Below are positions 51,989 to 57,052 of a DNA stretch of 64,000 bases, in pieces. The stretch spans positions 124,001 to 188,000 of the forward strand of contig JAKRSD010000017.1 of the NCBI GenBank assembly GCA_022402535.1, read 5' to 3'. Source of the stretch: Flavobacteriales bacterium (lineage in GTDB: Bacteria > Bacteroidota > Bacteroidia > CAIKAF01). The position numbers were made by a program, and so were the translations under genes. Under the pieces are notes generated by a model. That model had not been told where the DNA came from. It saw nothing but the letters and a program-made list of their open reading frames with translations, and searched no databases. How positions within the stretch are numbered: the first letter of the stretch is position 1; each line of letters begins with the position of its first letter.

Positions 51989-53221
51989 TTGTCACACGAA
52001 TTTTTCACCCTGCAACTGCCTAACGGAGTACATATGGTTCACATGAAGGCCAAAATGGCTTCTGCACGTTGCGGTATTCTAATAAACTCGGGGTCGCGCG
52101 ATGAAAACGGACTAAGAGGAACCGCCCACTTTTTGGAACATATGTTCTTTAAGGGCACTCAAAAGCGTAAAGCTTTTCATATTCTTTCTGTAATTGACAA
52201 TTCAGGCGGTGAACTGAATGCATATACCACCAAAGAAGAAACTTTTGTATATGCGTCCTGCCTTAAAGGCGATATGCGCAAAGCCATCGGTATCATAGCC
52301 GATGTGGTGCAAAATTCCGTATTTCCGGAAAAAGAAATTGAAAAAGAACGCGGAGTGATTCTGGATGAAATCAATTCATACAAAGACGACCCCGCCGAAG
52401 ATATTCTGGATTGTTTTGAAGAACATTGGTTTGCAGGACATGAATTGGGGTCCAACATTCTGGGAACCGTAGATGATGTTAAAAAAATCGGACGAAAAAC
52501 CATCGTAGATTTCATTGATCAATGTTATGCCAACGACCAGATTGTATTTTGCAGCGTAGGACAATTTTCTCTTGAAAAAATGGTGCAGTTGGTCTCCCCT
52601 TTTTTAAATTCGTTCCAGTTCAATGCCCAAAAGAGAGCCCGCAGTCCTTTTATATTCAACGGAAATACCTTTAACCGGATTGAAAAACGACCCATTTACG
52701 GCGCACATTGCCTGATGGGCTTTCCGGGTATTTCCAGAAATGATGAAGACCGAATTGTTTGTGGGGTACTGAATAATCTGCTGGGCGGTCCTTCCATGAA
52801 CTCCCTGCTGAGTATGACGCTTCGCGAAAAACATGGTATCTGCTACCAGATAGACAGCCAACTTCTGTCTTACATAGATACGGGTATATGGACTATTTAC
52901 CTGAATACCGATCCGGGCAAAATGGACAAAGCCGTTCAACTTACATTAGATGAGATTAAAAAACTGAGAACGCAAACGTTGAGCTCCTTAAAAGTGCATC
53001 AGGCAAAAAAACAGGTGAAAGGGAAATTGGCACTCTCCCACGAAAACCCGGGCAATATGATTCATATTATGGGGAAAAGTTATCTGCACAGAGGGTCGAT
53101 TGAAACCTTAAAAGAAATCATACACGAAGTAGATAAAATTACCCCCGAAAAGATTTTGGAAGCCGCCAACAAGTATTTGAATGCAGATAAAATGAGCAGC
53201 CTGATTCTTAGTCCTGCTTAA
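51989..53221 (+). CDS. M16 family zinc peptidase
   Basis: A 410-residue peptidase of the pitrilysin/processing-peptidase clan. The inverted zinc motif HXXEH is read in HFLEHMFFKGT at about residues 49-59, followed by SGGELNAYTTKEETFVYASC and the third zinc ligand in IEKERGVILDEINSY. The C-terminal half (GFPGISRNDEDRIVCGVLNN, LLGGPSMNSLLSMTLREKHG) is the regular inactive domain. The start is TTG at 51989 (SHEFFTLQLPNGVH), since the first ATG would remove the conserved start. No signal peptide is visible. Its stop overlaps the stop of the convergent DUF6134-like gene. Confidence 0.92.
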   Translation: MSHEFFTLQLPNGVHMVHMKAKMASARCGILINSGSRDENGLRGTAHFLEHMFFKGTQKRKAFHILSVIDNSGGELNAYTTKEETFVYASCLKGDMRKAIGIIADVVQNSVFPEKEIEKERGVILDEINSYKDDPAEDILDCFEEHWFAGHELGSNILGTVDDVKKIGRKTIVDFIDQCYANDQIVFCSVGQFSLEKMVQLVSPFLNSFQFNAQKRARSPFIFNGNTFNRIEKRPIYGAHCLMGFPGISRNDEDRIVCGVLNNLLGGPSMNSLLSMTLREKHGICYQIDSQLLSYIDTGIWTIYLNTDPGKMDKAVQLTLDEIKKLRTQTLSSLKVHQAKKQVKGKLALSHENPGNMIHIMGKSYLHRGSIETLKEIIHEVDKITPEKILEAANKYLNADKMSSLILSPA

Positions 53222-53811
53222 GACTTGGGTTTAAGCTTAACGGTGGCAATGGAAGTATGAAATTCGCCCAATTCTAATTTTCCGTTATTATACACATATA
53301 CATTACGGCTGCCGTCGGGGGTTTTATATTCGTAAGTATTGGGTTTTATCCATTTGAAGTCGGTATACTCTCCCCAGGCTTCGTTAAACATTTTCTGCTT
53401 GGAAGAAGGCTCTTTAAAATACACATGCAAAAGGCCATAATCAGCACCCGATGGGGCTTCAAATTTTCCATTTTTATGATGATGAACCTGATATTTCCCG
53501 GATGCGGATTTTGAAATTTTGCAATACTTTTCTACTACCCCATTTTCTTTATGCTCATAATACGAATCCACCATTTCTCCATTTACAAATGTGATGGTAA
53601 AACGGGTTTCGGCATCAATGTTTTTCCATAAAATTTTTGAGCTTGCTTTACTGAACAGGGTGTACATTTCAATTCCATTGGCACCTACCTTTCGCTCAGC
53701 ATCTAAATACCCGATGCTCTTTCCGAATAGTATCAAATCGAAGGACCTTTTCTGTGCATTGTTATGCAAAAAAATCAGTCCGAATACAATAAAAAACAAT
53801 GCTCTTTTCAT
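53218..53811 (-). CDS. DUF6134-like exported protein, copy 1 (last in the tandem)
   Basis: A 197-residue protein with a signal peptide (MKRALFFIVFGLIFLHNNAQ). Conserved strings shared with its two upstream neighbours are FDLILFGKSIGYLDAERKVG, KILWKNIDAETRFTITFVNG, SYYEHKENGVVEKYCKIS and EAWGEYTDFKWIKPNTYEYK, then VYVYNNGKLE. This matches a family I know as DUF6134, of unknown function. It starts 2 nt after the stop of copy 2, and its stop codon overlaps that of the M16 peptidase on the other strand. Three such genes in a row are unusual. Confidence 0.7.
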   Translation of the reverse strand: MKRALFFIVFGLIFLHNNAQKRSFDLILFGKSIGYLDAERKVGANGIEMYTLFSKASSKILWKNIDAETRFTITFVNGEMVDSYYEHKENGVVEKYCKISKSASGKYQVHHHKNGKFEAPSGADYGLLHVYFKEPSSKQKMFNEAWGEYTDFKWIKPNTYEYKTPDGSRNVYVYNNGKLELGEFHTSIATVKLKPKS

Positions 53812-53813
53812 GA

Positions 53814-54416
53814 TTAAACTTTGGGTTTCATTCTCACGGTTACGATCGAGGTATGGAATTCGGCATCTGTCATTTTACCCTGCTGAAACCGGTAAATGTA
53901 TTTGCTTCCATCCGGTGTTTTAAACTCATATTGATTTGCTCCCGATTTTTTCACTTTCACGTACTCTCCCCATCCTTCATTGAGCAAACTTGCTCCATCA
54001 GAAGGTTCGTTATAATACATCTTCAGTAAACAAAACTCGGCCATGTTTTGCACTTCAAATTTTCCCGTTTTAGAATGATGAACTGAGTATCCGCCGGCGT
54101 TCTCTTTTACTTTACAAAACTTTTCAATTTCGCCATTTTCTTTATGCTCAAAATATGATTCCTGCAGCTTTCCCGATTTAAAAACGACATGATAAGTGGT
54201 ATATGTTGAGATGGTTTTCCAAAGTATGGTTGAAGTGGCCGTACTGGTCATCGTATATACTTCAATATCTCCTTTTACTTTTTTATCCGTGACAATACTC
54301 CCTATTTTCTTACCTGCCAAAAACATGTCAAACTCCCGGGTTTGCGCCCAAGAGTTTGACAATATCAATAGAAAAAAAACGGGTAATGTTTTTTTAAGAC
54401 TCAAGAAAGAAGGCAT
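53814..54416 (-). CDS. DUF6134-like exported protein, copy 2
   Basis: A 200-residue paralogue of the neighbouring genes with its own signal peptide (MPSFLSLKKTLPVFFLLILSNSWAQ). It shares the family core: FDMFLAGKKIGSIVTDKKVK, STILWKTISTYTTYHVVFKS, SYFEHKENGEIEKFCKVKEN and NEGWGEYVKVKKSGANQYEF, with FRQQGKM-type ends. Its start codon overlaps the stop of copy 3 by one base (TAATG). Copies 1 and 2 are more alike than either is to copy 3, judging from the FEHKENG and ILWK motifs. Function unknown. Confidence 0.7.
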   Translation of the reverse strand: MPSFLSLKKTLPVFFLLILSNSWAQTREFDMFLAGKKIGSIVTDKKVKGDIEVYTMTSTATSTILWKTISTYTTYHVVFKSGKLQESYFEHKENGEIEKFCKVKENAGGYSVHHSKTGKFEVQNMAEFCLLKMYYNEPSDGASLLNEGWGEYVKVKKSGANQYEFKTPDGSKYIYRFQQGKMTDAEFHTSIVTVRMKPKV

Positions 54417-55003
54417 TATTTAACGAGCTTTACGTAAACCGTTCCTATAATTGTTTTTCTTTCCGTTTCAACCAATTCGCCGTTTTTGTATACATACACG
54501 TTTTTATCTCCGTTGGGAATTTTATACTCATACTTTCCAGAACCTAAATCGGTAAGCGGATATACTTCTCCGATTCTTTCCGTGAAGAGTTGTGTCATCC
54601 CTTTAGGCTCTGAAAAATACAATGATATTACACTGTATTTCACCTGAGTAGGATGAGTGAATTTTTTCTTCTCGTTGGTTATATTGTATTTGCTTCCATC
54701 CCAGTTAATACTGGCATAATTATCCACTTCATCATTGATTTCATTTTTACAGTAAGAGGAAACCAATATTCCATCTTTATAGGTAACATCCATTAAAACA
54801 TAATTCTTCTTGGTGCTGAATAAAACCTTAGCTTCTGATTTACTTTCAAGTTTGTATGTGGTAAAAGCCCCTTTTACGGTTTTGGTTGCCGTGAGCTCCC
54901 CTATTTTATTTCCCGATAATACCACTTCATATTTACGGGTTTGGGCATTTGCCTGAAGCATTCCAAACATGCCGACTGTAAGAAAAAATAATTTGATGTT
55001 CAT
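54416..55003 (-). CDS. DUF6134-like exported protein, copy 3 (first in the tandem)
   Basis: A 195-residue protein with signal peptide MNIKLFFLTVGMFGMLQANAQ. It keeps the family frame (YEVVLSGNKIGELTATKTVK, YVLMDVTYKDGILVSSYCKN, YNITNEKKKFTHPTQVKYSV, YEYKIPNGDKNVYVYKNGEL) but is the most divergent of the three. It begins 33 nt after the stop of the subtilase on the same strand, with no terminator between them, so the four genes are probably one transcript. Function unknown. Confidence 0.7.
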   Translation of the reverse strand: MNIKLFFLTVGMFGMLQANAQTRKYEVVLSGNKIGELTATKTVKGAFTTYKLESKSEAKVLFSTKKNYVLMDVTYKDGILVSSYCKNEINDEVDNYASINWDGSKYNITNEKKKFTHPTQVKYSVISLYFSEPKGMTQLFTERIGEVYPLTDLGSGKYEYKIPNGDKNVYVYKNGELVETERKTIIGTVYVKLVK

Positions 55004-55036
55004 AAATGTATGTTTTTGATAAAATTAAAACTTAGT

Positions 55037-56968
55037 TCACTGTTTAACAAATTTCATGCTAACAGGTTCAATATAATCCCAAATGCACAAAAAATAAATT
55101 CCTGATTTTAAATCTTCTATGCTTATAGTCTGAATAAATTCATTGTTTGAATGAATATTAAAATTCCCCGAACCCACTTCTATTCCTGCAATATTTACCA
55201 ATTTATAAGGATACATTCCCGTTTCCCATCCATGCATCATAATCTGAATGTCATGTTTTGCCGGATTAGGGAATAAATGAATCGAGCGTGTTTCTTCCGG
55301 CAATGAAGTCGTGCTTAAATAAGGTGCTCCCAAGAGAGCTTGATGGGCATTGATTCTTCCGGACCCCAATTGGGGACTCCATGTACCGTATGCCACATGG
55401 GTACTGTCGTAATTATACCCTCCTACCCGTTCGGCTGTTACTCTCATCAATGTTCTCACTTCATTAAATGTAAAATCAGGATAAAGACTTAAAATAAGAC
55501 CGGCCACTCCGGCTGCATTGGGGCATGCCGCTGAAGTGCCTCCGAACTCAAGATAATAATCGCCGTTGGAATAGCCATAGTTGCCCGACATATCGGTTGT
55601 GGTAACCTGCACACCCGGAGCTGATAAATCTAAGCCGGTTCCATAGCAACTGAAAGAAGCTCTTTTATCTTTATTGGTTGTAGCTCCCACGGAAATATTA
55701 TTAAACAATGAGGCGGGCCAAATTAATGCCGCATTTTCATTACCAGATGAGAACATCTGAATAGCTCCTTTTCCATTTCGTCCCTGAGCCCTGGCCAGAT
55801 TCAAAGCTTCCATTACCACAAATTGATCTACGGGGGCAAATGGGAGTAAATCGGGAGGAAGTCCCCAAGAATTACTTAATATATCAGCCCCTGCGGTTTG
55901 CCAGGCCCACGTAGTACCTGCTACCATAAAATCGGTCTCAGAATAGGGAATTTCATAAAGCATCGTATCTATAAATCCAGGAATAAAAATGCTGGTGTCC
56001 ACATAAAAAAACATTTTCACAGGGACTATACTGCAATCGTAAGCCACACCGGCCACTCCAATTTGGTTATTTCCCTTCGCGGCGGCAATACCGGCACAGG
56101 CCGTTCCGTGGCCGTCACTTGGGAAATTCAAATTAGGATAGCCATGGCTGTTTCCTCCCGTGGCGTCAAAACCGGGAAGTAAGTTTGGCATCAAATCCGG
56201 GTGAAGTGTATCTACACCGGAATCGAGTATTGCAATTTTTATGGATGGGTTTCCTGTAGTCAGTGTCCATGCATTTACCACATCCATATCAGCACCCGCA
56301 GTTCCGCTCCACTGCAATGCGTTTCCATTATTCTGTAACGACCATTGACGGGGAAAAAGTGAATCGTTTACGCTGTTTACAATCGGGAAAAAGGCAAAGT
56401 TTACGTCCGTAAATTCGATTTGAGGTAAATCGCTCAATAAGATAGAAGCTTCCAAAGCATTACATAAAGAGTGTTTAGAAAAACGTAAAACATATACATT
56501 AGGCAACCAGGGACTTTTGCCAATAAACGTTGCTGCAAAATCCTCTGCCAATCCGGTTAAATATTCTTCAGGATTTAAGTTATCTGAAGCGCGTAATTTA
56601 ACGTACAATTCTTCCAGCACGCCTCGTTCATTCCCTCCCGAGTCTTTCAGCCAGGGAGTAACTGAATTTATTTGCTCTTTCGTTTTCAATTCGTCAGCCG
56701 CCTTTTGAATGCCATATTCTTTTTTTACGGTCACCAGCCAGCGCCCGGGCTTCAATGGCCTTAGGGTTTGGTGGGTTTGTAGTCCTTCACAAGCAGAAAA
56801 CAAAGCCTTCATTTCTGTTTCAGTAATGGAAACATCATAACTGACCAACAACTTGTCCGTGAGAACACTTTTATATTCCGGCAGACTATACAGAGAAGGA
56901 AATGTAAGCTTTTGGGAATATGCAGCCAAAGCAAAAAGAATCCCAAACAGTGTAATAAGTTTTTTCAT
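55037..56968 (-). CDS. Subtilisin-family (S8) protease with T9SS sorting domain
   Basis: A 643-residue secreted serine protease. A signal peptide (MKKLITLFGILFALAAYSQ) is followed by a propeptide of about 200 residues and the S8 catalytic domain: Asp249 in AILDSGVDTLHPD, His287 in DGHGTACAGIAAAKGN, oxyanion Asn410 in FSSGNENA, and Ser479 in FGGTSAACPNAAGVAG. The last about 80 residues are a T9SS sorting domain (IHLFPNPAKHDIQIMMHG, LVNIAGIEVGSG, LKSGIYFLC). It is likely cotranscribed with the three DUF6134-like genes that follow. The predicted -7 element sits 5 nt before its ATG. Confidence 0.93.
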   Translation of the reverse strand: MKKLITLFGILFALAAYSQKLTFPSLYSLPEYKSVLTDKLLVSYDVSITETEMKALFSACEGLQTHQTLRPLKPGRWLVTVKKEYGIQKAADELKTKEQINSVTPWLKDSGGNERGVLEELYVKLRASDNLNPEEYLTGLAEDFAATFIGKSPWLPNVYVLRFSKHSLCNALEASILLSDLPQIEFTDVNFAFFPIVNSVNDSLFPRQWSLQNNGNALQWSGTAGADMDVVNAWTLTTGNPSIKIAILDSGVDTLHPDLMPNLLPGFDATGGNSHGYPNLNFPSDGHGTACAGIAAAKGNNQIGVAGVAYDCSIVPVKMFFYVDTSIFIPGFIDTMLYEIPYSETDFMVAGTTWAWQTAGADILSNSWGLPPDLLPFAPVDQFVVMEALNLARAQGRNGKGAIQMFSSGNENAALIWPASLFNNISVGATTNKDKRASFSCYGTGLDLSAPGVQVTTTDMSGNYGYSNGDYYLEFGGTSAACPNAAGVAGLILSLYPDFTFNEVRTLMRVTAERVGGYNYDSTHVAYGTWSPQLGSGRINAHQALLGAPYLSTTSLPEETRSIHLFPNPAKHDIQIMMHGWETGMYPYKLVNIAGIEVGSGNFNIHSNNEFIQTISIEDLKSGIYFLCIWDYIEPVSMKFVKQ

Positions 56969-56973
56969 GGAAA

Positions 56974-56981
56974 TAAAGGTA
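56974..56981 (-). promoter_or_regulatory. Predicted -7 element for the subtilase operon
   Basis: TACCTTTA on the minus strand (one mismatch to TAnnTTTG) with TTTG 21 nt upstream (57003-57006). It ends 5 nt before the ATG at 56968, so a leaderless mRNA is possible. Confidence 0.4.
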
Positions 56982-57003
56982 AAAATTCATGGCATACAAA
57001 CAC

Positions 57004-57030
57004 AAAAAAAAGGCGCCGGATTCCGACGCC
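57004..57030 (-). terminator. Intrinsic terminator of the M43 metalloprotease gene
   Basis: GGCGCCGG pairs with CCGACGCC (one mismatch) around a 3-nt loop at 57012-57030, and on the minus strand eight T follow. Confidence 0.75.
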
Positions 57031-57052
57031 TTTTCTCTTCAGCTTAATATGT

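What the first reader, a model, noticed from the sequence alone, without database searches (positions are those of the whole stretch)
53218..56968. Subtilase followed by three tandem DUF6134-like genes
Three exported paralogues with overlapping or 2-nt spaced ends directly follow a T9SS-exported subtilase, with no terminator between. Copy 3 is more divergent than copies 1 and 2, which points to two duplication steps. The consistent pairing with a secreted protease suggests protease substrates, inhibitors or assembly factors. This could be an undescribed envelope module.
Basis: inference. Interest (0 to 1): 0.5.

Follow-up and report, generated by a model that had tools for sequence, protein, structure and literature searches.

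The report
Subtilase gene with tripled DUF6134 neighbours
A bacterium of the phylum Bacteroidota (judged from its relatives) carries an exported-protease gene followed by three copies of an unstudied protein whose predicted shape resembles EipB, a cell-envelope protein known from another phylum, but the tie to the protease is seen only in close relatives.

Summary
The observation largely holds: 53218-56968 (-) carries an S8 subtilase with a T9SS tail, then three DUF6134 (PF19630) genes, spaced 33 nt, 1-nt overlap and 2 nt. DUF6134 is in 62 of 395 sampled genomes of the class; only this genome shows it in tandem. An S8 of this type lies near DUF6134 in 2 of 60 other loci (both one sister genus); the other neighbours looked at are varied. 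In the two genera with the pair it is tight while the two flank genes checked differ, so it is a real but lineage-limited gene pair. The main new result is structural: AlphaFold models of two copies (pLDDT 91.1, 89.8) have 14 and 15 strands, and their best VIA-align match among solved structures is EipB (DUF1849, 6NTR; Z 13.2 and 13.9). Foldseek ranks EipB first for one copy (E 5.5e-5), not within its first 50 for the other. No sequence method finds the link. I read DUF6134 as a periplasmic carrier or chaperone of hydrophobic cargo (inferred). A strong terminator-like hairpin lies inside the middle copy. The copy beside the subtilase is the ortholog-like one; the other two are sisters.

The parts
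55037..56968 (-). S8 subtilase, 643 aa; motifs LDSGVD at 248, GHGTA at 286, GTSAACP at 477; T9SS C-terminal tail
   Evidence: PF00082 160.5 bits, PF18962 34.3 bits; motif positions
54416..55003 (-). D1: DUF6134 copy beside the subtilase, 195 aa, ortholog-like copy
   Evidence: PF19630 78.6 bits; groups with single copies of G001, G002, G006 (83/83); AF2 pLDDT 91.1
53814..54416 (-). D2: DUF6134 copy, 200 aa; start overlaps D1 stop by 1 nt
   Evidence: PF19630 63.4 bits; AF2 pLDDT 89.8, top Foldseek match EipB
53218..53811 (-). D3: DUF6134 copy, 197 aa; 2 nt after D2; sister of D2; its stop overlaps the stop of the convergent M16 gene
   Evidence: PF19630 53.5 bits; D2+D3 100/100
54326..54361 (-). 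Terminator-like hairpin inside the D2 coding sequence: 15 contiguous pairs, loop 6, then TGTTTTTGG
   Evidence: dG -24.6 kcal/mol, z -6.6; in 240 kb of this genome one of two such hairpins inside a called ORF, and the one with a T-rich tail
57004..57038 (-). Terminator-like hairpin 15 nt after the upstream M43 gene; likely 5' edge of the transcription unit
   Evidence: 16 pairs with a T-rich 3' arm
56975..57005 (-). Candidate promoter before the subtilase (loose Bacteroidota-type match, consensus recalled)
   Evidence: pattern match only, no chance control
55021..55050 (-). Second loose promoter-like match, just before D1; would argue against one shared message if real
   Evidence: pattern match only, no chance control
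51989..53221 (+). M16 peptidase, convergent neighbour; 3' boundary, not part of the unit
   Evidence: PF00675/PF05193; its homolog is about 45 kb from DUF6134 in G001, no match at E 1e-20 in G002/G006

Best explanation
DUF6134 proteins are Sec-exported, periplasmic beta-spiral proteins of the EipB shape (about 14 antiparallel strands rolled into an open cylinder, with a short helix). Most likely they carry or shield a hydrophobic envelope cargo (lipid, lipoprotein acyl chain, or unfolded outer-membrane or secreted protein) in the periplasm. Here the ancestral-type copy D1 is made from the same message as a T9SS-exported subtilase, so that the two rise and fall together; D2 and D3 are extra copies that arose by duplication and lie at or beyond a hairpin that may lower their dose. 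Shown: genes, spacing, family, distribution, hairpin sequence. Predicted: fold. Inferred: export site, shared message, cargo role, effect of the hairpin.
For: Two AF2 models of high confidence, built on the 3 window proteins plus proteins of 10 public loci. Best VIA match for both is EipB 6NTR: Z 13.2, rmsd 3.5, 173 aligned of a 195-residue model; Z 13.9, rmsd 3.9, 176 of 200. Foldseek for D2 ranks three 6NTR chains first, E 5.5e-5 to 1.4e-4. A review describes EipB as periplasmic, 14 antiparallel strands in a spiral-like cylinder; its deletion makes cells sensitive to envelope-disrupting compounds; a LolB-like or outer-membrane-protein chaperone role is raised but not shown (PMC10787603, passages read). 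Some lower matches are lipid or lipoprotein carriers (LmcA Z 9.9, LolA up to 7.7, LolB 6.8). Strands such as 47-60, 63-76, 92-101 and 187-193 alternate hydrophobic and polar; median pI 8.9 over 63 members. The S8-DUF6134 pair is kept in two genera although two flank genes differ.
Against: Fold similarity shows no function. For D1 Foldseek found nothing under E 0.001, its best was LolA (E 0.003), and its first 50 rows do not show 6NTR. The two models share the same 13 sequences, so they are not independent. No sequence link to EipB: none of D1-D3 matches PF08904 at E 1, and the part shown of the 56-member scan (25 of 44 families) does not list it. 9FQR chain Xh, from a sperm axoneme entry, scores nearly as well (Z 12.8, 12.5), so part of the match may be a common beta meander. 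Other matches above or near the carriers are not carriers: KdgM porin 9.3, DUF1089 8.8, VioE 7.7, a designed barrel 7.7. The face pattern is unclear in several strands (32-44, 79-89, 146-154, 167-173). A loose promoter-like match lies before D1. Co-transcription and cargo were not tested.
Confidence: 0.45

Rival explanations
1. DUF6134 is an accessory of the subtilase itself: a periplasmic foldase, holdase or inhibitor that keeps the zymogen quiet until T9SS export, multiplied here for dose.
For: DUF6134 directly follows each of the three best-matching subtilases of the class sample. In genus g5 it follows an M16 protease pair (gaps 96, 24, 12 nt in L049-L051; a signal peptide on the nearer M16 read by eye), a second protease context.
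Against: 58 of 60 other DUF6134 loci show no such S8; 27 of 30 best S8 loci have no DUF6134. Other neighbours include DivIC, a helicase, a class II tRNA synthetase, YebC and more and, named by eye, RpoN and AsnRS.
Confidence: 0.2
2. The neighbourhood is inherited by two related genera without a functional tie; D1-D3 do a stand-alone envelope job and were duplicated neutrally or for dose.
For: Only one lineage shows the S8 link, and DUF6134 has varied neighbours elsewhere.
Against: The pair stayed adjacent although the subtilases match at only 56% and 50% identity and two checked flank genes are elsewhere or not found.
Confidence: 0.3
3. DUF6134 is a diverged DUF3108 (YmcC-fold) protein that replaces DUF3108 where that is missing.
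For: 15 of 16 genomes of the window's family have no DUF3108 match, and 14 of these 15 have DUF6134. One genome has the two side by side (L078).
Against: Profile comparison gives 2% probability; the match to 3FZX is only Z 6.3 and 7.1. 38 of 45 carriers outside the family have DUF3108; the 7 without are six f10 genomes and G190. Three further f10 genomes (G104, G136, G221) lack DUF3108 too and are not among the carriers listed.
Confidence: 0.05

Closest known systems
EipB (DUF1849, PF08904), PDB 6NTR
   Same: Best VIA match for both models; strand number close (14 in EipB, 14 and 15 listed in the models); both look exported to the periplasm (PMC10787603, passages)
   Different: No detectable sequence similarity; other phylum; eipB sits near bamA, and none of the 39 DUF6134 neighbours scanned with Pfam is a BamA-type protein; 195-200 residues against 236-242 in the solved chains; among D1 positions no cysteine column is filled in more than 16 of 63 members
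DUF6134, PF19630
   Same: All three window proteins are full-length members over the cut-off
   Different: Three in a row, seen in 1 of 62 carriers
LolA/LolB and LmcA/LprG lipid or lipoprotein carriers
   Same: Envelope proteins with a curled beta-sheet; VIA Z 5.7-7.7 for LolA/LolB, 9.9 for LmcA; LprG only in the Foldseek lists
   Different: LolA/LolB scores lie in the range the tool calls a common arrangement; no Pfam match
S8 subtilases with a T9SS tail
   Same: Catalytic motifs and tail
   Different: Nothing unusual in the protease itself was found

Membership tests
DUF6134 (PF19630) | Score over the curated cut-off along the whole profile | tested here: met
   78.6, 63.4, 53.5 bits against 27.9; profile 1-183 of 184
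EipB_like (PF08904) | Match to the family profile | tested here: not met
   D1-D3: no PF08904 at E 1; own genome: none, but the control rang nowhere; 56 members: not among the 25 families shown of 44
EipB_like (PF08904) | 14-strand beta-spiral fold | tested here: met
   On predicted models only: VIA Z 13.2 and 13.9 to 6NTR; Foldseek top for D2, not in the first 50 for D1. Likeness of fold, not membership
EipB_like (PF08904) | Role in envelope integrity | not testable with these tools
   needs a mutant
LolA/LolB | Fold and sequence | tested here: inconclusive
   Z 5.7-7.7; no Pfam match for D1-D3 at E 1
DUF3108 (PF11306) | Profile or fold likeness | tested here: inconclusive
   hhalign probability 2%; no Pfam match at E 1; 3FZX Z 6.3 and 7.1
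Peptidase S8 | Profile and Asp-His-Ser motifs | tested here: met
   160.5 bits; motifs
T9SS type A cargo | C-terminal sorting domain | tested here: met
   PF18962 34.3 bits over 27, but TIGR04183 19.7 under 23; in the G006 and G002 subtilases PF18962 is 26.0 and 20.7, both under 27

The most novel reading that the evidence does not exclude
DUF6134 is the Bacteroidota counterpart of EipB, a general periplasmic holdase or lipid carrier; in this lineage one copy was wired to a type 9 secreted protease as its periplasmic escort, then tripled, with an in-gene terminator hairpin setting how much of copies 2 and 3 is made.
Probability: 0.12. Interest if true: 0.6.

Novelty: new variant of a known kind. 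Interest (0 to 1): 0.33.

Why it matters
No paper naming DUF6134 was found in the library searched, and the family has no assigned role, yet it is in 62 of 395 sampled genomes of the class. A confident predicted fold and a named look-alike give a first testable function, and would carry the open question of what the EipB beta-spiral does into a second phylum.

Tried and rejected
Rejected or left open: (1) 'Consistent pairing with a secreted protease'. (2) DUF3108 replacement: among 80 relatives DUF6134 is in 16 of 18 genomes without DUF3108 and 10 of 62 with it (counted), but these are essentially two clades (f1, f10), and f10 genomes lack DUF3108 with or without DUF6134; hhalign 2%. (3) A local origin of all three copies is neither shown nor excluded: holding D1-D3 together p-AU 0.121; holding D1 with G002/G006 p-AU 0.087. 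In the 63-row tree a long-branched second copy of G068 (L077) joins D2/D3 (99/97); not followed up, and left out of the tree, which held only rows of the window's family. (4) Phage origin: best PHROG match E 0.044; one viral-contig scan found no relative. (5) Sequence searches of solved structures gave nothing under E 0.08. (6) What 9FQR chain Xh is could not be found (passages). (7) Sigma-70-type promoter sites: 13 found, 11.6 expected.

Rows dropped: one search lists 69 DUF6134 places; 3 are the window, 60 were fetched for the neighbour survey, 6 were not (G247, G291, G166, the second of G368, and the two under cut-off, G332 and G158). Pfam was run on 28 upstream and 11 downstream neighbours, not on all 60 loci. 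The S8 scan used a profile of 23 subtilases like the window's; very different S8 proteins could be missed. Of the 30 best S8 loci the places below rank 30 were not looked at, among them G082 (51% over a part). Several genomes are drafts, so a tandem split over contigs could be missed. My ORF picker misplaced some ORFs in crowded loci (L067 corrected).
Full report
What is there. On the minus strand, 56968 down to 53218, four genes read the same way: a 643-aa S8 subtilase, then three DUF6134 genes, D1 (54416-55003), D2 (53814-54416) and D3 (53218-53811). The subtilase has the Asp, His and Ser motifs and a T9SS tail over the Pfam cut-off but under the NCBIfam one; the genome has SprA. A terminator-like hairpin (57004-57038) follows the M43 gene upstream, and D3 meets an M16 gene end to end. 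Gaps are 33 nt, a 1-nt overlap and 2 nt.

The other four hairpins of at least 13 pairs and 5 G-C pairs in the window lie outside called genes, 5 to 114 nt after a same-strand stop. In 240 kb of this genome two such hairpins lie inside a called ORF, and the other (in L195) has no T run. On the looser terminator scan the region has no excess of sites (4 against 4.4 expected). The hairpin may reduce reading into the rest of D2 and D3; whether it ends transcription is not known. A loose promoter-like match before D1 (55021-55050) is a point against a single message (no control).

Distribution. DUF6134 is in 26 of 80 relatives, 62 of 395 genomes of the class (60 over the cut-off) and 11 of 395 drawn from the phylum. 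In one search only the window's genome has two or more on one contig, and no further copy was found among the ORFs called in 60 fetched loci. So the tandem is unique in these samples, drafts allowing.

Pairing with a subtilase. After the window's own, the best subtilase matches in the class sample are G002 (56% identity) and G006 (50%), one sister genus, and there DUF6134 follows directly. G006 leaves 20 nt; in G002 all ATG/GTG/TTG starts found in frame overlap the subtilase's end, the nearest by 20 nt. The gene after DUF6134 there, an FAA hydrolase in G006, has its homolog on another contig of the window's genome, and the M16 gene beside the window's array has its homolog about 45 kb from DUF6134 in G001 and no match at E 1e-20 in G002/G006. 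So the pair stayed while these flanks changed. Beyond these genera it fails: 2 of 60 loci, each fetched as 4-15 kb, hold such an S8, and 27 of the 30 best S8 loci hold no DUF6134. In genus g5 DUF6134 follows an M16 pair (3 of 60 loci directly, a fourth within 1 kb). A second copy in two g5 genomes overlaps a gene of M19 type on one side and of amidohydrolase type on the other; the domains were scanned in L057 only, and neither protein has a signal peptide by eye. The other neighbours scanned are varied.

History of the copies. D2 and D3 are sisters (100/100); D1 groups with the single copies of G001, G002 and G006 (83/83). Two duplication steps fit, but whether both were local is open (p-AU 0.121).

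Fold and likely job. AF2 gave pLDDT 91.1 for D1 and 89.8 for D2. VIA ranks EipB (6NTR) first for both, Z 13.2 and 13.9; 9FQR Xh is second (12.8, 12.5), and the third match is well below (8.6 and 9.9). Foldseek ranks EipB first for D2 (E 5.5e-5); for D1 it has nothing under E 0.001 and 6NTR is not in its first 50. No sequence method found the link. A review describes EipB as a periplasmic 14-strand spiral whose loss weakens the envelope, with Lol-like or outer-membrane chaperone roles proposed and unproven (PMC10787603, passages); the original paper was not held. From the fold, the signal peptide, the alternating faces of some strands and the basic pI I infer a periplasmic carrier or chaperone of hydrophobic cargo.

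Verdict. A real, lineage-limited gene pair with a tandem unique in the samples; ordinary as gene order, of some interest for the predicted structural tie of DUF6134 to EipB. No paper naming DUF6134 was found; of four papers holding '6NTR', seen as a listing, one is on topic by title, that review.

Noticed in passing
window 54326-54361 (-): Terminator-like hairpin inside the D2 coding sequence, one of two such in-gene hairpins in 240 kb and the one with a T-rich tail.
   Followed up: partly
L057 3254-6535 and L064 5535-8816: In two g5 genomes a second DUF6134 gene overlaps, on either side, a gene of M19 peptidase type and one of amidohydrolase type (domains scanned in L057 only).
   Followed up: no
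L049-L051, L053: In genus g5 DUF6134 follows a pair of M16 peptidase genes.
   Followed up: partly
L078 5876-8175: DUF3108, DUF6134 and a sigma-70 family factor gene lie in a row in G212, with gaps of 96 and 14 nt.
   Followed up: partly
L118, L122, L124-L127, downstream of the subtilase: In genus g9 the related subtilase is followed by a small lipoprotein-like gene (by eye) with a shared motif, a different partner from DUF6134.
   Followed up: no
genomes of families f1 and f10: DUF3108, found in 62 of 80 relatives, gave no match in 15 of 16 f1 genomes and in all 9 f10 genomes tested, some of them incomplete.
   Followed up: partly
L077 6983-7576 (-): A second DUF6134 copy of G068, from another family, joins D2/D3 in the 63-row tree on a long branch.
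   Followed up: no
L198 8474-8508: 16-bp inverted repeat outside called genes on contig C12 of the same genome.
   Followed up: no
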